From positions 434,001 through 498,000 of the forward strand of contig NZ_JAAOIZ010000002.1 in assembly GCF_013184525.1 (NCBI RefSeq): a DNA stretch of 64,000 nucleotides. The letters are read 5' to 3'. Each line of letters begins with the position of its first letter. The first letter of the stretch is position 1. The notes beneath the pieces were generated by a model. That model did no database searches. It was not told the origin of the DNA and worked only from the letters and a program-made list of their open reading frames with translations. Shown here piece by piece: positions 50,818 to 59,503 of this stretch. A program made the position numbers and the translations under genes. The stretch comes from Chryseobacterium sp. LAM-KRS1. GTDB lineage: Bacteria; Bacteroidota; Bacteroidia; Flavobacteriales; Weeksellaceae.

Positions 50818-53220
50818 ATGAAAAATATCTTCTTTTTAATGCTGATTTCAACGGTTCAACCCTTATTATCACAAACCAAACTGGAAAAAGCAATCACTAA
50901 TCTTGAAAATAATTACGAACAGGAAAAAGTATACCTTCTTACCGATAAACTTCAATATGCAGCGGGAGACCAGATCTGGTTTAAAGGTTTTGTATTTGAC
51001 GGTTACAACCGTTCGACATTATCCACCACCCTGTTTGTGGAATTGTACGATTCCGATAAGAAGTTAATAGACTGGAAAACAGTACTTCTTACCAATGGTG
51101 AAGGCAGCGGAGATTTCAAGCTTAAAGCAGACCTTCCGGAGCAGGTTTATTTTGTAAGGGCCTATACTCCGTACATGACGAATTTCAGCGATGATTTCCA
51201 AATTGTTAAAACCCTTCCGGTTTACAATCCTACCTCAACTAAAGCATTAGAAGTTGCTAAAAATTCAGATTGGTCCGCCAAAGCGTTTTCTGAAGGTGGA
51301 AACTTCATTAATGGTACACCTACAAAATTTGCTATAAGACTTTATAGCAATGTTTCTCTTCCGGAAAAATGGAGTGGAAAAATAATAGACGTACAAAATC
51401 CAAATGTTCCTATAACCACTTTCACCTCGCTTGATAAAAATGTAGCTTCTTTTAAAATAACACCGGCATCAGGGAAAAAATACCAGGCCATCATTGAAGA
51501 TAATGCAGGAAAAAAGCAAACCATCAATTTACCCGAAGTTACAGACAGCGGTCTTCATGTAGAAGTTTCCAGCTCGAATGAAGGGATAAAATACAGTTTA
51601 AAAGGAGTTAATTTAAAACAACAGCTTCAGAATTATAAAATTGTAGGGACCATTAATAATCACTTAGCTTACAAGGCAAATATTACCCAATTAACCAGTG
51701 AAGTCTCAAGCACGATCCCTACAAAAATCAGCAATGGGGCCAATGGTGTTTTACAGCTGGCTATTTTTGATGAACAGGACAATCTGGTCGCAAAAAGACT
51801 TTGCTTTATCAAACCGAATAATTTAAAGATTGAGAAAGCAGAAATTGTTGGCCAGAATTTAAAAGAAACACCAAGATCTTTCAACAGTATCGACCTTTCA
51901 CCGGAGTCTTATTTTAAAAATTATACGGTTTTGGTAAGTGAGGATGACGGAAGTAACACAACTGAAGAAGAGAATATCCTGAGCAACCTTTGGTTAACAG
52001 GAGATCTTTCTTCAAAAATAGACAGTCCAGCCCAATACTTCTCTAAAAATGCCAATACCGAAGCTTTGGATGCCCTGCTTATTTCTGAAAACTGGAAAAG
52101 GTTTGACTGGAATTCAGTACTTAGCGGAACGGTTCCCGCCATTAAAGCCAATTCTCAGAAATTTCTTTCTTACAGGATAAAACCCCTTAAAGACAACGCC
52201 CTGATGAGAGATACCAATGTAAATGTAGTTCTTAAATTAGGGGAAAACGAACCCAGTATCAATCAGTTCAGAACCGATCAGATGGGATATATTTATTTGA
52301 ACAATCTTAGTTTTGATGAACCCCTGAACGTTTCCGTATTTGCAAATTCTGAGAAGGGTAAGGAATCAGAAAATGATCATTTATTCGTAACCGTAGAACC
52401 CTTAGTTATCCCAACACCCTTTAAAGGAAGCTTGCCGGCTACGAAATACACATTGGTAACAGCCACTGAGAATAAGAAACTTCCTCCGGCCATTTCAAAA
52501 GCCATCAACACTCAGAAAAATATTAAAAAGCTGGAACATATTGATGTCCAAATTGAAGAAGTACAATTAACAGGAAAAAAGAAGGATCCCAAAGAAGAAT
52601 TAAACAAACAACTATCCTCGGGAATGTTCAGTTCCGTGAATTCCACTATATTCGATTTCGTTAACGAGGACCAACATGTCTCCGGATCAACCAATATATT
52701 GGACTGGCTGCAGGGAAGAGCTGCCGGTTTAACATTCCAGAGAAATAACTCAGGGATCAATGTACCCTATATCCGTGGTCAGCAAGCCAAGCTTTACCTG
52801 GATGAAACCCCTACCGATGCAAGTATGATCACCAGCCTTCCGGTCAACAATATTGCCATGGTGAAAATTATTAAGGGTTCCGGACTAATCGGTAACGCAG
52901 TACTCATCTATACAATGAGAGGCAATATGAAATCTAAAAGTAACGAGAAGGATCCTCAAAAGAACAACCTATCGGTTATAAAGGGATACGACAAACCATC
53001 AGAATTTTCTATTGAAACACTGGATACGGATGATCCTGCAAAGAAAATTGAAAATGACACCCGGGAAACGCTTTACTGGAATCCTAATCTGTATGACAGT
53101 GATTATGTTCCTCCAAGAATTAAATTCTTCAATAACGACACCGCAAAACAATATAAGGTACTGATCATCAGTTTTGATGAAGATGACAATATTCTGTATG
53201 AAAACAGGGTGTTTAAATAG
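50818..53220 (+). CDS. Periplasmic MG2-like protein with C-terminal TonB-plug domain
   Basis: The start at 50818 (MKNIFFLMLISTVQPLLSQ) exposes a signal peptide and gives 800 aa; an upstream TTG at 50779 is unlikely. The first part (about 25-150, VYLLTDKLQYAAGDQIWFKG, then YFVRAYTPYMTNF) resembles a macroglobulin MG2 domain. Near the C-terminus (about 630-710; ILDWLQGRAAGLTFQRNN, VPYIRGQQAKLYLDE, IAMVKIIKGSGLIGNAVLIYTMRG) is a TonB-receptor plug-like domain with no barrel. The family is common in Bacteroidota and its job is unknown. Confidence 0.8.
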   Translation: MKNIFFLMLISTVQPLLSQTKLEKAITNLENNYEQEKVYLLTDKLQYAAGDQIWFKGFVFDGYNRSTLSTTLFVELYDSDKKLIDWKTVLLTNGEGSGDFKLKADLPEQVYFVRAYTPYMTNFSDDFQIVKTLPVYNPTSTKALEVAKNSDWSAKAFSEGGNFINGTPTKFAIRLYSNVSLPEKWSGKIIDVQNPNVPITTFTSLDKNVASFKITPASGKKYQAIIEDNAGKKQTINLPEVTDSGLHVEVSSSNEGIKYSLKGVNLKQQLQNYKIVGTINNHLAYKANITQLTSEVSSTIPTKISNGANGVLQLAIFDEQDNLVAKRLCFIKPNNLKIEKAEIVGQNLKETPRSFNSIDLSPESYFKNYTVLVSEDDGSNTTEEENILSNLWLTGDLSSKIDSPAQYFSKNANTEALDALLISENWKRFDWNSVLSGTVPAIKANSQKFLSYRIKPLKDNALMRDTNVNVVLKLGENEPSINQFRTDQMGYIYLNNLSFDEPLNVSVFANSEKGKESENDHLFVTVEPLVIPTPFKGSLPATKYTLVTATENKKLPPAISKAINTQKNIKKLEHIDVQIEEVQLTGKKKDPKEELNKQLSSGMFSSVNSTIFDFVNEDQHVSGSTNILDWLQGRAAGLTFQRNNSGINVPYIRGQQAKLYLDETPTDASMITSLPVNNIAMVKIIKGSGLIGNAVLIYTMRGNMKSKSNEKDPQKNNLSVIKGYDKPSEFSIETLDTDDPAKKIENDTRETLYWNPNLYDSDYVPPRIKFFNNDTAKQYKVLIISFDEDDNILYENRVFK

Positions 53221-53240
53221 TATTTATCTATCTCCAAATA

Positions 53241-53275
53241 AAAAGATTCGAAAACGTGCAGTTTTCGAATCTTTT
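53241..53275 (+). terminator. Strong hairpin terminator after the MG2-plug gene
   Basis: A perfect 15-bp stem (AAAAGATTCGAAAAC / GTTTTCGAATCTTTT) around GTGCA, 20 bp after the stop, with A and T runs on both sides. Confidence 0.85.
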
Positions 53276-53302
53276 ATTATTTGTTAATCCGTAAGATTAA
53301 TA

Positions 53303-53381
53303 AAATAAAGCCACAGGATCGAAAAAAACGGTTCACACATCATTCTAAGATTTACGTTTCTTACAATTTGTGGCTTTATTT
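53303..53381 (-). terminator. Long-loop inverted repeat after the DUF4142 gene
   Basis: Arms AAATAAAGCCACA (53303-53315) and TGTGGCTTTATTT (53369-53381) enclose a 53-nt loop. The right arm abuts the stop codon, so on the minus strand this is a terminator with an unusually long loop, which itself can pair AAACG with CGTTT. Confidence 0.55.
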
Positions 53382-53993
53382 TTACTTTATTCCTGATTTT
53401 GTTTTTTGTGCTTCCATTAAATGGTGATCCAAGGTTGGCAAGGTTTTGCTTGCAAATGACTTCAGTGAAGCTTCCTGACCATCAGCAGCTTCTTTTTTGA
53501 ACTCTGCAATATCTTCTTTGTGGTCACTCACCATAAGATCACTATACATACGATCGAATTCTACTCCTTTTTTAGACTTCAGCTCATCGTATTTATTTTG
53601 TTTTTCAGCATCTAAACTTGTTGGTAAAGTATAACCAACTGTTGACGCCCAGCTTTTTAGTTCTTCATTCGCTTTACTGTGATCTTTTACCATCATTTCA
53701 CCCAGGTTTTTTACATTTTTGTCGGAAGCATTCGTCGCGGCAAGCTTCCCCATCATTACCTCCATCAAACCTCCCTGAGCTGCCCCATCGGCAAATTTCT
53801 TATCCTGATCCGAAAGAGAGACTTTGGTATTGGTAGTGCCTGTTACAGTGGTAGAATCGGCCGTCACGGCTGGTGAATCAACGGAGGGAGCCACTGCTGT
53901 ACTGTCCATCGGTTGATTAACTGTCGTTGTTTCGCTTTTCTTACAGGCCAACATCGTGGAAACTGCAAGAAGGGTTAAAATTGAATTTTTCAT
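53382..53993 (-). CDS. DUF4142 lipoprotein
   Basis: 203 aa. A lipoprotein signal peptide ends in LLAVSTMLAC (lipobox Cys at about 17), then a Thr/Ser/Val-rich linker (about 20-55), then the DUF4142 helical domain with MMVKDHSKANEELKS and MVSDHKEDIAEFKKEA. The domain is ferritin-like in outline, but the usual metal ligands are not evident and the function is unknown. Confidence 0.88.
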   Translation of the reverse strand: MKNSILTLLAVSTMLACKKSETTTVNQPMDSTAVAPSVDSPAVTADSTTVTGTTNTKVSLSDQDKKFADGAAQGGLMEVMMGKLAATNASDKNVKNLGEMMVKDHSKANEELKSWASTVGYTLPTSLDAEKQNKYDELKSKKGVEFDRMYSDLMVSDHKEDIAEFKKEAADGQEASLKSFASKTLPTLDHHLMEAQKTKSGIK

Positions 53994-54461
53994 AATATAA
54001 TTAAATTGGTTTGGTCAGTAAAATAAAAAAAATCATCCCTTACACCGGAGAAGATCATTTCTGTTTCACATCGAATTTAGAAAAGTAAAACCGGATACTT
54101 TATGACCTGAATCATATTCATCAATCACTTTTTATCTTTTTTATGTTTCTCAAGGGGTAAATCTTTCTTATGGTAAAACATTGTAAAACCAATACCTCGG
54201 TAGTCTAAAACCTATATGCTCAATTCATTAAGAAAAAAGAAAACAATACCCCAACCCAACACCTGATTTACAAAAAATAGGGGTATGCCCTGACCCACAA
54301 ATTCAATTTTCATAGGAAATTAGCAATACAAACCTGGTTTATGGAGATGTTTCGGGATTCAGTTCAATAGAATTCCAGAGTTATAATGTCCCATAAGATG
54401 GAAAATCAAACCACAAAAATGGAGAGATGGAAATATCATATATCGCTTAAGAAATAATACT
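53994..54461. other. 468-bp intergenic region left of the accessory genes
   Basis: It holds the 15-mer AACACCTGATTTACA at 54258-54272 inside a larger inverted repeat (ATACCCC 54246-54252, GGGGTAT 54280-54286). It presumably holds the promoters of the DUF4142 gene (-) and the 540-aa gene (+), not resolved. No ORF of note. Confidence 0.4.
54246..54286. promoter_or_regulatory. Inverted repeat containing the 15-mer shared with 36238-36252
   Basis: ATACCCC...GGGGTAT arms around a 27-nt centre that includes AACACCTGATTTACA (minus strand TGTAAATCAGGTGTT). It lies about 250 bp before the DUF4142 start. Confidence 0.35.
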
Positions 54462-56084
54462 ATGAAAGAAAAACTTGTAAAGCAAAAGGAAGAACTATCT
54501 CAGATACGAACTATTTTACAAAGCCTGGATATTGACAATGATGAAAGATTTCAATGGGGCTCAGAAGGATCACTACAGGACTATGAATATGACTTAAAGG
54601 TTGTAAAAAAAGATGTCAGCTTTTACCTGAAAGAGGATTTGTATTACATAAACCGTATAAGGCAAAATTACATCTCATCTGCACCCGATACGGAAGAGCA
54701 AAAAATCTTAGAAGCTGAGTTAAGCAGAATGAAAAAAATGTACAATTATAAGATCAATTATCTGACTATTATGTCTCACCTGAAAGATCTGGAGGATAAG
54801 CCTAAGATTGAATTGGCTAAACTTGAAAAAAGATACTCAGATCAAATTCGCCAGCTGGAATATGAACGTTCCAGACCAATACATTTCAGGCAACGTACCC
54901 ATGAAGGATACAAGAGGAAAATAATCAGAAAGTCTGAGCGATCATATGACCAAAAAATAAAAAAAACAAAAAAAGACCTCGAAGATGAGAAAAAAGAAAC
55001 AGCTATCAGGATAAAAAAAGAAGAAAAAGAGCTGTTCAAAGAAGTTACTCAGTTTCTGAAAATTGATGAACGTTATATATCGCTTATAAAATCCGGTGTT
55101 ATGTTATTGCCTAGTGATTCACGCCTGGCAGCAATTTTCCCAAAAAACCGGTGGCTCACATTCAACAGTTTCAACAAAATTAACAGACATGAGATCATGC
55201 ATCAGCATGCGCGCAAACTTTTAATGAAGCATAATTTGTTTACAGGAGAAACAGGCATATTACCTGGTAGCAGGAAAGGATGTATTTGTATTATGTACAT
55301 TAAAGAGGGACATATGAAAGATCGTAGTGGAGCAACTTTCAGACCCGTCTTTGGAGCCTCTGGTATCAGGCCTTATGGTGAAAAATTTAATTTAGAAGAA
55401 GTACAGATTGAAAGAAATAGTTATATCAGCATGGGGGTCCCCGATCCCATAGATGCAGCCGGTAATTCTTATGAAAAAACAGTCGAAAGGTTACTTAAGC
55501 ACGTGGATATTATGCAACGCCTTGGCATAAAACCACCTTCAATGCAATCCAGCTTATATTTCCTGCAAACTCCCGAATATAGGGACAATAAAAATAGACA
55601 AAACAGGATCACTATGCTTGAAAACTGGATGCCAAGTAACTGTGCTGAACCAGCTATTATGACGGCCATTTACCAAATGTACAGCCGGCCGGCTGATATT
55701 TACCTGTCAGTACCTTTTGAAGGTTATTTGTCTGAAGGGAAACTTTTACTTAAATATACCTGTGCGAGGTGTGCCCTATCGGAACCTGCTTTTATGTCAC
55801 CAGTCGACACAAGCACAGGACAAAGGCTTACCGACATGCGCTTACAGAGTAATAGATCGTTCCTGATAAGCGATCGTATATTATCTGAAGGGCTAATGTA
55901 TAATCATGCCAAGAAGAAAAACAATGAGGAGGACAAAGCTCATCCTTATAGTAAAAAGGATGTTGCTATAAAACGTACAGCTCTTCTCAATCAGGCATAT
56001 GGTTTTGAACATGTAAAACGTGGACACGAGCAAGTCGCTATGGATACCACAATGATACTCATGATAGGTCTGAAATTTAAATAA
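54462..56084 (+). CDS. Unrecognised coiled-coil protein with probable zinc-deaminase-fold domain
   Basis: 540 aa, not recognised as a whole. Residues about 1-200 are charged helices with coiled-coil character (KKTKKDLEDEKKETAIRIKK). From about 270 a globular region begins: strand RKGCICIMYI, strand ATFRPVFGA, a helix-rich insertion, then NCAEPAIMTAIYQM (Cys394-Ala-Glu396) and, 38 residues on, KLLLKYTCARCALSEPA (Cys434, Cys437). A [HC]AE...CxxC pair following beta-strands is the zinc and proton-shuttle signature of the cytidine-deaminase fold, also seen in polymorphic-toxin deaminases. No signal peptide. Alone on its strand with a long upstream gap. The deaminase call is inference. Confidence 0.6.
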   Translation: MKEKLVKQKEELSQIRTILQSLDIDNDERFQWGSEGSLQDYEYDLKVVKKDVSFYLKEDLYYINRIRQNYISSAPDTEEQKILEAELSRMKKMYNYKINYLTIMSHLKDLEDKPKIELAKLEKRYSDQIRQLEYERSRPIHFRQRTHEGYKRKIIRKSERSYDQKIKKTKKDLEDEKKETAIRIKKEEKELFKEVTQFLKIDERYISLIKSGVMLLPSDSRLAAIFPKNRWLTFNSFNKINRHEIMHQHARKLLMKHNLFTGETGILPGSRKGCICIMYIKEGHMKDRSGATFRPVFGASGIRPYGEKFNLEEVQIERNSYISMGVPDPIDAAGNSYEKTVERLLKHVDIMQRLGIKPPSMQSSLYFLQTPEYRDNKNRQNRITMLENWMPSNCAEPAIMTAIYQMYSRPADIYLSVPFEGYLSEGKLLLKYTCARCALSEPAFMSPVDTSTGQRLTDMRLQSNRSFLISDRILSEGLMYNHAKKKNNEEDKAHPYSKKDVAIKRTALLNQAYGFEHVKRGHEQVAMDTTMILMIGLKFK

Positions 56085-56247
56085 AATAGATACTGACCAT
56101 ATACTGCAATAGTAAAATGCGGATATCCATATGGCTGCAACAATAGCATCGTTAAAGAAAATCCACATAAATTTTAGTACAATACCGCAAGTTTCGGATT
56201 TCTTATTTCTCTGTGTAAAGCTAATTTTACTTCATAAAGATCATGAT

Positions 56248-56961
56248 ATGAAAGATATGGAAAAGAGGCTTGCTGCGAAGGATTGGCATTCAGTAAAAAG
56301 GGAATTGCACGATAAGGGTTTTGTGATTGTCCGGGATATATTAACAAAAATGGAATGTGACAATTTAATTGCTTTATACAATGCAGACAACACGTACCGC
56401 AAAACCATCAATATGGAACGATATCGTTTTGGCCGGGGAGAGTATAAATATTTCCAATATCCTTTACCTGAACTCATTACCACGATCAGGGAACAGGTAT
56501 ATGCTGAAATAGCACCGGTGGCCAATCAGTGGATGCAGGAACTTGCTATTGAAAAAACATTCCCTTCCACACATAAAGAGATGAAAAAGCTCTGTATGGA
56601 ACATAACCAGGAAAAGCCAACAGTATTAATATTAAAATATAGTGAAGGTGGATTTAACACCTTGCATCAGGATCTGTATGGTGAAATTTATTTTCCGATG
56701 CAGATCGTTTTTATGCTGGATCAGACAGAGGAAGATTATACAGGTGGAGAATTTGTTATAACAGAGCAGATTCCCCGTGCGCAATCCAAAGCTAATGTAT
56801 TAAAACCCAACCGGGGCGATATGCTGATACTCACAACCAATTTCCGTCCGGTGAAAGGGTCTAAAGGGTATTACCGGGTTAATATGAAACATGGTGTAAG
56901 TCCGGTTCACAGTGGACAAAGGCACAGCCTGGGTATTATTCTCCATGACGGATTGAGTTAA
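56248..56961 (+). CDS. 2OG-Fe(II) oxygenase
   Basis: I start at 56248 (MKDMEKRLAAKDWHSV), 237 aa, because family proteins begin here; an ATG at 56131 adds a 39-residue tail with no resemblance. The double-stranded beta-helix ligands are visible: LHQDLYG (His140, Asp142) and MKHGVSPVHSGQRHSLGI (His215, with Arg225 for 2-oxoglutarate). The substrate could be protein, nucleic acid or a small molecule. It precedes an Ada-like gene by about 75 bp, the sort of neighbour found with alkylation-repair oxygenases, but the assignment is not settled. Confidence 0.86.
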   Translation: MKDMEKRLAAKDWHSVKRELHDKGFVIVRDILTKMECDNLIALYNADNTYRKTINMERYRFGRGEYKYFQYPLPELITTIREQVYAEIAPVANQWMQELAIEKTFPSTHKEMKKLCMEHNQEKPTVLILKYSEGGFNTLHQDLYGEIYFPMQIVFMLDQTEEDYTGGEFVITEQIPRAQSKANVLKPNRGDMLILTTNFRPVKGSKGYYRVNMKHGVSPVHSGQRHSLGIILHDGLS

Positions 56962-57037
56962 GTCTTACCTCCATCAAAACGATTTAAAAGACTTTTTGAG
57001 ATAAAAATAAATATGGAAACCAATATCAAGCAGTAAG

Positions 57038-57316
57038 ATGATAAAGCATACCGATCTCGGCCAGACTTCCGAGGAAAGAAAAAAAGCGCTCAGCTCTATG
57101 ATCCGTAATGGCGTTATAACACTTGGTGGTTATAAAAAAGCAAAGATTTATGGTTTACTTTCATGTTCTTCAGGTAAAAGAATGAAGACCGAAAACCGTG
57201 TTTTCTTTAAAAACGAAGAAGAAGCGCTTACATATAACTATAGGCCTTGCGGAAACTGTATGAAGGAAAAATATGAGGAATGGAAAAAGAAGACTAGTAA
57301 AGTGAGAACCACATAA
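57038..57316 (+). CDS. Ada-like metal-binding small protein
   Basis: 92 aa. The C-terminal half follows the Zn-binding domain of Ada: KAKIYGLLSCSSGKRM, then ENRVFFKNEEEAL, then NYRPCGNCMKEKY. Cys43, Cys71 and Cys74 are present; the fourth ligand of the four-Cys Ada site is not obvious. The N-terminal half is a short basic helix region. No methyltransferase domain. It sits downstream of the 2OG oxygenase gene. A role in sensing or binding DNA damage is inference. Confidence 0.72.
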   Translation: MIKHTDLGQTSEERKKALSSMIRNGVITLGGYKKAKIYGLLSCSSGKRMKTENRVFFKNEEEALTYNYRPCGNCMKEKYEEWKKKTSKVRTT

Positions 57317-57500
57317 GAATCATCGAATCATACATAATAAAAGTGAATATTAATCCTATATTGCTGTATCCATTATTAAATACTTTGAAAAGGAATTTAC
57401 GTAATCCTCATTCGCTCCTCACATCATATTTTAATAAAGTTTATTTATGTATATTGGATATGTATTTTTTATAAAAAAATAAAAACTAAATACCAATTTT

Positions 57501-57755: not shown

Positions 57756-59264
57756 TTACTTAAGCCTGCCATTCATCTCCTTAACAAAATCATCCCATTG
57801 TTTATTCAGATACGTCAATGACCGTTTCTTTTCACTTTCATTCAGAGACGAATAATTAATCGAATTAAAAACAAGCTTCTTCAGGGCTTTTACATCAAGT
57901 TCCCAATATATATACGCAACCCAGAAATCATATCCAAGACCTTCGTATCCGTAAACACTAGGATCATCACTGTTAATGGAACACTGTATTCCGTTACTTA
58001 ACAAAACTCTTGCAGGATGATTTCTCAGATCACTTACATATCCTAAAACCTGGTTACTGATCGGGCTAACCTCAACAAGCTTATTTTGTTTTTTGATCAG
58101 TTCCATAGTTTTGGGAAAATAGATCAAATTCAAACCATGTCCGATTCTTGGGTTATCCAGTGATGCAATGTCGATCATATTTTTATTAAAGACAGAAACG
58201 CTTTCCCCTGCATGAAGGAAAAGAGGCATCTTTACGCCATACTTTTTACTGAGTTCATTCAGCTTCGCCCAATCTTCCCGAAAAGAGTAAATACTATTCC
58301 CGGCAGCCTCATCAGCCACAAGGTCAAAACCTGAAATAACATCCGGAAATTCTTTTTTAAGTTCAAAAGCTGTTTCAAGTTGTTTTCCTACAGCCTGTGG
58401 GTCTAAAAATTTAAAACTTGAATAAATTAATTTCAGACTGAATTCCGGGTACTTTTTCTGTATCTCTTTCACTACTTCCTGCAAATCTGTGACTGAAGTT
58501 TTCAGAGGGTATTTTCCATGCTGAAAATCGTACAATTCATCAAAAACATATCTTATTTCTACATGCTGTACTTTATTTGCCGCTAAATCTTCAAATCCTT
58601 TCTTATAATACTCTTTGAAAAAAGGACGGTAAGGCAACAGGAGGCTTATCCTTGTAAAGCGTTTTTCAAATTCAATCCAGTAATCCGAGTACATACAGAG
58701 TGATTCCCGCTTCAGCAGAAGAAGTTCTGTCAACTGTTTTTCAAAGCCGGGTTCGGAACTCAATTTTTGATCAAGGCTGACAAATCCTTTTGGGACTTTC
58801 CCATCTTGAAAAAACGCCAGCTGCCCGAAAATAAAATCTTTGGTATCCGCCTGATCGTAGATATAGCATTCTTTATATTTTCTTGCTGCAGCAATTACCC
58901 ATTTTGCATCCGTGATCCCGCCACTATGCGTGTGCAGCAGGCCTCCTTTAGGCATTGATTGAAAGATCTCAAATAATCTACTGCTTTCAATCAGAGGTTT
59001 TAATTCATTAAATGAGCTATTATACAAAGATATTTTTTGCTTTTCTGCTCCGGCCAGGAAATCTTTTCTTATCTGAAATAACTTTTGATCCAAAGCAATT
59101 TCAGCATCGGATAACTTTACATCAGCATCGAAAGCAATTGCTTTATTCTGCTGTTCAAGCTGCATCCAGTTTTGTTGATATGTAGAATTTTCAGCCACTT
59201 TGCTTTGGCATCCAAATAAAGGAAATCCAAAAAATAACAGATAAGTAATATATTTTTTCATCAT
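57756..59264 (-). CDS. Adenosine-deaminase-family lipoprotein (ADGF-like)
   Basis: Start at 59264 (MMKKYITYLLFFGFPLFGC), a lipoprotein signal with the lipobox Cys at about 19; 502 aa. The metal-dependent ADA motifs are in order: LLHTHSGGITD (HxH), FLHAGES, GHGLN, SPISNQVLGY and NSDDPSVYG. The size and N-terminal region resemble extracellular ADGF/CECR1-type deaminases. It probably converts adenosine or a modified nucleoside at the outer face of a membrane. It stands alone with its own upstream gap. Confidence 0.9.
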   Translation of the reverse strand: MMKKYITYLLFFGFPLFGCQSKVAENSTYQQNWMQLEQQNKAIAFDADVKLSDAEIALDQKLFQIRKDFLAGAEKQKISLYNSSFNELKPLIESSRLFEIFQSMPKGGLLHTHSGGITDAKWVIAAARKYKECYIYDQADTKDFIFGQLAFFQDGKVPKGFVSLDQKLSSEPGFEKQLTELLLLKRESLCMYSDYWIEFEKRFTRISLLLPYRPFFKEYYKKGFEDLAANKVQHVEIRYVFDELYDFQHGKYPLKTSVTDLQEVVKEIQKKYPEFSLKLIYSSFKFLDPQAVGKQLETAFELKKEFPDVISGFDLVADEAAGNSIYSFREDWAKLNELSKKYGVKMPLFLHAGESVSVFNKNMIDIASLDNPRIGHGLNLIYFPKTMELIKKQNKLVEVSPISNQVLGYVSDLRNHPARVLLSNGIQCSINSDDPSVYGYEGLGYDFWVAYIYWELDVKALKKLVFNSINYSSLNESEKKRSLTYLNKQWDDFVKEMNGRLK

Positions 59265-59503
59265 AATATCTAGGGTTATATGGCACAATTCGGCATGCCT
59301 AAGAATTAATTATTATCAAAAATATAATTAATTTTTTGAGTAAAACAACTTCAACCTGGCAGAATCTCAGATAAAATAAAGGAATGCAGTCGGTAAGAAC
59401 TGAGTCTCAACGACTTTATTTTTGATACTCCTGATTTATATTTTGTTCTTTTAGGATCATCAAAATTATTTCAACCTGAATGAACCCCAAACAGCATCTT
59501 ATT

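What the first reader, a model, noticed from the sequence alone, without database searches (positions are those of the whole stretch)
54462..56084. Unfamiliar coiled-coil protein with a zinc-deaminase signature
Seen: a strand-rich region with Cys394-Ala-Glu396, then Cys434-x-x-Cys437 after another strand; an about 200-residue coiled coil before it. Known: [HC]AE plus CxxC in that order is the active site of the cytidine-deaminase fold, including toxin deaminases. Inference: this is a deaminase-fold enzyme on an unusual N-terminal scaffold, possibly an effector, an editing enzyme or a defence component. The family is unknown to me, and it is beside other accessory-looking genes.
Basis: partly seen in the sequence, partly recalled or inferred. 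Interest (0 to 1): 0.66.

Follow-up and report, generated by a model that had tools for sequence, protein, structure and literature searches.

The report
Orphan coiled-coil protein, possible deaminase
A rare accessory protein of a few Chryseobacterium species carries a conserved zinc-deaminase-like signature behind a long helical stalk, but neither sequence profiles nor predicted structures could prove that it is a deaminase.

Summary
Window 54462-56084(+) encodes a 540-aa protein with a roughly 200-residue helical N-terminus and Cys394-Ala-Glu396 ... Cys434-x-x-Cys437. It is a real gene under purifying selection. Full-length copies occur in 5 of 173 searched genomes of the genus (one from the window's own species), plus one C-terminal remnant; no convincing relative was found in the family, order and phylum samples, plasmids, phages or viral contigs searched. 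The motif residues are identical in all five full-length copies; the longest invariant run (391-421) contains CAE; the strict motif arises in 32 of 200,000 shuffles. Deaminase identity is unproven: no deaminase match in Pfam, NCBIfam, PADLOC, PHROGs or PDB sequences, hhalign to TadA and cytidine-deaminase sets did no better than reversed controls, and two AlphaFold2 models had pLDDT below 40. Their secondary-structure order nevertheless fits a deaminase core. I found no immunity gene or conserved partner, and full-length copies lie at two unrelated loci, so a classical polymorphic toxin is disfavoured. Best reading (0.5): a solitary accessory zinc enzyme of a new, unassigned deaminase-like family; role (intracellular conflict enzyme or effector) open.

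The parts
54462..56084 (+). Whole gene, 540-aa protein P0001; ATG start, native G+C (0.375 against 0.376 for the window)
   Evidence: homologues
54462..55061 (+). Residues 1-200, charged helical N-terminal region, evolving faster than the core
55164..55811 (+). Residues 235-450, putative deaminase-like core (helix, two strands, insert, CAE helix, strands, CxxC)
   Evidence: low-confidence secondary structure in two models; conservation
55641..55649 (+). Cys394-Ala-Glu396, candidate zinc ligand and catalytic glutamate
   Evidence: invariant, inside the longest invariant run 391-421
55761..55772 (+). Cys434-x-x-Cys437, candidate zinc ligands
   Evidence: both Cys invariant while residue 435 varies Ala/Thr
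55812..56081 (+). Residues 451-540, fast-evolving C-terminal tail with conserved GFxHVKRGHxQ; the only part of the family left in the G036 remnant

Best explanation
P0001 is a solitary accessory zinc enzyme of a new, unassigned family with a cytidine-deaminase-like core. Cys394, Cys434 and Cys437 would hold the zinc, Glu396 would move the proton, and the ~200-residue helical region would oligomerise the protein, sense a trigger or bind a substrate. It would act inside the cell that makes it, or be delivered as an immunity-free effector, by deaminating a nucleotide or nucleic-acid base. Shown: the gene, the motif, its conservation, purifying selection, patchy distribution and lack of a conserved partner in the loci compared. 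Inferred: fold, zinc, chemistry, substrate and biological role.
For: Motif with the order and spacing of deaminases, 32 of 200,000 shuffles. The C394-to-C434 distance is 40, against 39-42 in 9 and 33 in 7 of the 16 Bacteroidota cytidine deaminases collected. The five motif residues are invariant in 4 of 4 distinct sequences, and x435 varies. dN in residues 386-450 is 0.03-0.11 with dS 0.5-2.7; the longest invariant run holds CAE (391-421) and one of two tied for second holds C437 (436-447). Two low-confidence models both give helix, strand, CAE at a helix start, then strands before CxxC; the first also has a helix from 435, the second also a strand at 290-300. No conserved neighbour between its two full-length locations: three species share one locus, the fourth has it elsewhere.
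Against: hhalign to 20 mostly TadA-type and 16 cytidine-deaminase sequences gave probabilities of 0.3% or less, and reversed controls scored higher, up to 2.0%. Models have mean pLDDT 39.8 and 36.6, and no deaminase is in the fold-search rows shown. Conservation of the motif is partly uninformative because the whole core is conserved.
Confidence: 0.5

Rival explanations
1. Not a deaminase: an unknown lineage-specific protein whose cysteines are structural (for example a zinc site of C274-x-C276 with C434-x-x-C437) or merely conserved; the CAE/CxxC match is a coincidence.
For: All 5 cysteines, including C274 and C276, are invariant; no profile or fold link to deaminases; relaxed motifs arise in 1703 of 200,000 shuffles.
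Against: Strict motif is rare by chance; both models put C394 at a helix start, and the first puts C434 there too; E396 invariant.
Confidence: 0.35
2. Antibacterial polymorphic toxin delivered to competitors, with a deaminase warhead and a cognate immunity protein.
For: Motif type [HCD]xE plus CxxC is the one listed for toxin deaminases, with Bacteroidetes among the carriers, in PMC3482391 (passages seen); fast-evolving N-terminus and tail.
Against: No known secretion or repeat domain recognised; the motif domain is not a swapped C-terminal cassette, as 4 of 4 distinct sequences align end to end. The downstream 2OG-oxygenase is in 68 of 171 genus genomes, while full-length P0001 is in 5 of 173. 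The C. pennipullorum copy has no ORF of 50 aa or more on its strand in the 611 bp before the next gene.
Confidence: 0.15
3. Single-gene abortive-infection or anti-phage deaminase, acting like (not a member of) AvcD.
For: Patchy presence, no partner, different loci. The G036 remnant lies about 0.4 kb from a Gabija pair (GajA E 1.4e-210, GajB E 1.6e-138). The two genes downstream in the window match PADLOC models, a CRISPR-associated 2OG model (E 2.3e-8) and the candidate PDC-S40 (E 4.7e-5), though both matches are modest and that pair occurs widely without P0001.
Against: One remnant beside one defence system is an anecdote; P0001 itself has no PADLOC match. No RNA antitoxin of the AvcI kind is suggested: Rfam gave only a sub-threshold U6 match, and no notable tandem-repeat array was found beside the gene.
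Confidence: 0.2
4. Zinc metalloprotease read from H243-E-I-M-H247.
For: HExxH spelling is present in the window copy.
Against: E244 is Lys in C. paridis and H247 is Tyr in G173.
Confidence: 0.01

Closest known systems
Cytidine deaminase (CDA, PF00383 type)
   Same: CAE then CxxC; distance 40, equal to the host's own CDA and close to 9 of 16 Bacteroidota CDAs (39-42; the other 7 have 33)
   Different: No significant sequence or profile similarity; 4 PF00383 matches in the genome, none at this gene; 540 aa with a helical stalk; about 90-130 residues between the predicted second strand and CAE; Thr rather than Pro before the first Cys of CxxC
Polymorphic-toxin deaminases (Tox-Deaminase; YwqJ, BURPS668_1122, SCP1.201/DddA-like)
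   Same: [HCD]xE plus CxxC signature (PMC3482391, passages); accessory and patchy
   Different: No match to PF14431, PF14424 or PF14428 in the window's genome (the last two rang in no control genome either); no immunity gene or delivery domain found
AvcD, deoxycytidylate deaminase toxin of the AvcID anti-phage system
   Same: A deaminase used in a conflict system (PMC10511110, start of abstract in a search listing); only an analogy
   Different: AvcD has an RNA antitoxin; none is suggested here
Wolbachia WD0512-like toxin deaminases
   Same: CxE plus CxxC, in a family reported without immunity genes (PMC3482391, passages)
   Different: Giant toxin proteins of endosymbionts; no sequence comparison was made here

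Membership tests
Deaminase superfamily (cytidine-deaminase fold) | [HCD]xE and CxxC motifs in order, conserved in homologues | tested here: met
Deaminase superfamily (cytidine-deaminase fold) | Three-layer alpha/beta/alpha fold with the four residues at one zinc site | tested here: inconclusive
   pLDDT 39.8 and 36.6; Foldseek and VIA-align not interpretable
Deaminase superfamily (cytidine-deaminase fold) | Significant profile match to a known deaminase family | tested here: not met
   Pfam at E up to 10: no family for 3 of 3 members; hhalign to TadA and CDA sets not above reversed controls. The query profile is thin (Neff 1.3), so this is a weak negative
Deaminase superfamily (cytidine-deaminase fold) | Zinc-dependent hydrolytic deamination | not testable with these tools
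   needs protein
Polymorphic toxin | Adjacent immunity gene | tested here: not met
   no neighbour shared by the two full-length locations
Polymorphic toxin | Secretion or trafficking module at the N-terminus | tested here: inconclusive
   no known domain in Pfam or NCBIfam, but an undescribed module cannot be excluded; secretion systems of the host were not searched
Polymorphic toxin | Swapping of C-terminal toxin domains | tested here: not met
   4 of 4 distinct sequences align end to end
Known anti-phage defence system | Match to a PADLOC model | tested here: not met
HExxH metalloprotease | Conserved HExxH | tested here: not met
   K244 in L003, Y247 in L008

The most novel reading that the evidence does not exclude
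A new family of stand-alone deaminases, unassigned to any profile and so far seen only in a few Chryseobacterium species, in which a long helical sensor or oligomerisation stalk controls a base- or nucleotide-deaminating core used as a single-gene anti-phage or host-directed weapon without an immunity partner.
Probability: 0.2. Interest if true: 0.6.

Novelty: new variant of a known kind. Interest (0 to 1): 0.36.

Why it matters
If it is a deaminase, it adds a family that the profile libraries searched here miss, with an unusual architecture. New deaminases are of practical interest as base-editing tools and of biological interest as conflict enzymes. If it is not, it is a very narrowly distributed orphan with a misleading signature, a useful caution for motif reading.

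Tried and rejected
Wider homologue search: relatives 2 of 99 (own gene and the G036 remnant); genus 6 of 173 (5 full-length including the window's genome and a same-species genome, 1 remnant); family 21 of 320 at E 0.01 or better, 6 of them those same copies; phylum 3 of 395, one of them own; order 6 of 395 at E 0.001, two of them own and remnant. The remaining weak matches (E 3e-5 to 0.009) mostly start at profile position 267-268. I looked at 11 of them; in 5 of 11 the printed frame is what I recognise as thymidylate synthase, and one search lists thymidylate synthases at E 1.6 over the same stretch. I treat them as chance; the others were not identified. The genome-contig scan found 2 relatives. 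Viral contigs: three scans, no relative. Plasmids and phages: no match for the whole protein; the 126-aa motif stretch gave only E 1-5 noise.

Structure: whole protein and residues 201-540 both gave low-confidence models, probably for lack of alignment depth (4 and 5 sequences). Foldseek best E 0.12 (a mitoribosomal protein) and VIA-align best Z 4.7 (SciW) are not interpretable; no deaminase is in the rows shown, which excludes nothing.

Getting toxin-deaminase alignments for hhalign failed: PF14431 0 of 99 phylum genomes (control rang in Bacillus subtilis), PF14424 0 of 75, PF14428 0 of 73 genus genomes. The last two rang in no control genome, so they say nothing about absence. PF14437 rang in 114 of 114 genomes, but most of the proteins I read from it look like ordinary TadA, so it served only as a TadA source. 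For hhalign, 20 of 34 loci and 16 of 30 loci were kept; the rest were dropped because my scripts did not find the motif near the middle in the three forward frames they read. The 20 include one dCMP-deaminase-like and one CDA sequence.

The 2OG-oxygenase as functional partner was rejected: it is in 68 of 171 genus genomes, with the Ada-type zinc protein beside it in 28 of the 30 loci read, of which only 3 of 30 carry P0001.

Full report
What is there. The window lies in G000, at C2:434001-498000. Two genus-mates are the named genomes Chryseobacterium paridis and C. pennipullorum, whose contig coordinates coincide with handles G148 and G149, so the host is a Chryseobacterium by the database's genus grouping (inference).

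It is a real gene. Homologues by tblastn: C. paridis (L003, 72% over 583 columns), C. pennipullorum (L004, 66% over 555), G173 (L010, 71% over 533) and a same-species genome, G156 (L011, 99.4%). dN is below dS in every region and pair: residues 386-450 have dN 0.03-0.11 and dS 0.5-2.7; residues 1-200 have dN 0.12-0.29; the tail has dN 0.18-0.35 with dS 0.5-0.8. G+C is native (0.375; window 0.376).

The motif. [HC]AE followed by CxxC appears in 32 of 200,000 shuffles, and the relaxed form in 1703 of 200,000. The motif residues are invariant in the 4 distinct sequences, while x435 changes Ala/Thr; the same-species copy has them too. The longest invariant run, 31 residues (391-421), holds CAE; 436-447, tied with 276-287 for second longest, holds C437. 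Caveat: 293 of 540 positions, and 55 of 65 in residues 386-450, are invariant anyway. The C394-C434 distance of 40 equals that in the host's own cytidine deaminase (40); of 16 collected Bacteroidota CDAs 9 have 39-42 and 7 have 33.

Fold. Two AlphaFold2 runs gave mean pLDDT 39.8 (540 aa, 4 sequences) and 36.6 (residues 201-540, 5 sequences). Both place a helix around 240-256, a strand around 274-281, a helix from 395/396 to 406, and strands ending at 424 and 432; the first adds a helix from 435 and the second a strand at 290-300. The order helix, strand, strand, CAE helix, strand, CxxC helix is what I recall for the deaminase core, but the confidence is too low to count as a test, and neither model alone shows every element. 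Foldseek and VIA-align gave nothing interpretable. Profile tests were negative: Pfam even at E 10, NCBIfam, PADLOC and PHROGs, PDB sequences, and hhalign against TadA and CDA alignments, where reversed controls did better than the real query. The query alignment has an effective number of sequences of only 1.3, so these negatives are weak too.

Neighbourhood. In the window, C. paridis and G173 the gene lies between a protein with weak MG2 and TonB-plug matches (both below Pfam's cut-offs) and a 2OG-Fe(II) oxygenase plus a small Ada-type zinc protein, with a different gene just upstream in each: a DUF4142 protein; one I read as an alpha/beta hydrolase; one I read as SnoaL-like. In C. pennipullorum it lies between a gene I read as pgl and an RCC1-repeat gene with a Por secretion tail, and that genome's 2OG gene is elsewhere on the contig. 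In G036 only a stretch matching residues 488-535 remains, about 0.4 kb from a Gabija pair. So the gene does not travel with a fixed partner. The 2OG-oxygenase occurs in 68 of 171 genus genomes and has the Ada-type protein beside it in 28 of 30 loci read. Those two proteins have modest PADLOC matches of their own (CRISPR-associated 2OG, E 2.3e-8; PDC-S40, E 4.7e-5), so I do not claim that the locus is free of defence-like genes. No RNA family above threshold and no notable tandem array lies at 53000-57500.

Mechanism. I commit to a solitary accessory zinc enzyme with a deaminase-like core (0.5). The absence of a recognisable immunity gene disfavours an antibacterial toxin. Intracellular conflict enzyme or immunity-free effector are the two roles left, and nothing here decides between them. 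The main rival is that the signature is coincidental (0.35).

Known or not. PMC3482391 (passages only) lists [HCD]xE plus CxxC deaminase families in polymorphic toxins. The main paper on the superfamily (recalled as Iyer et al. 2011) is not held. Searches for toxin deaminases, for Chryseobacterium with deaminase effectors, for cytidine-deaminase phage defence and for structure-based deaminase mining (listings only) showed no paper I could link to this family; that is not proof of absence from print.

Noticed in passing
window 56131-56961 and 57038-57316 (+): A 2OG-Fe(II) oxygenase (PF09859 Oxygenase-NA) followed by a stand-alone 92-aa Ada-type zinc-binding protein; the pair lies together in 28 of 30 Chryseobacterium loci read, suggesting a conserved DNA-damage or alkylation module. 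The orthologues' start suggests that the oxygenase really begins near 56250.
   Followed up: partly
L008 3277-3991 (G173): The 2OG-oxygenase of G173 is split into two reading frames, so it is probably broken or frameshifted there.
   Followed up: no
window 57756-59288 (-): An adenosine-deaminase-like (amidohydrolase fold) protein resembling adenosine deaminase-related growth factor (TIGR01431, E 7.4e-91, 305.3 bits, below the 315-bit cut-off); as I recall a fold unrelated to the candidate despite the shared word deaminase.
   Followed up: no
L012 5673-9802 (G036): A Gabija pair (GajA, GajB) with a RusA-like gene sits about 0.4 kb from the remnant of the P0001 family.
   Followed up: partly
window 54462-56084, residues 403-466: A short stretch resembles thymidylate synthase (YSRPADIYLSVPF against YQRSADIFLGVPF), giving recurrent weak profile hits; taken as chance.
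   Followed up: partly
window 54462-56084, C-terminal GFxHVKRGHxQ (residues 514-524): A conserved histidine-rich tail motif of unknown meaning, part of the stretch that survives in the G036 remnant.
   Followed up: no
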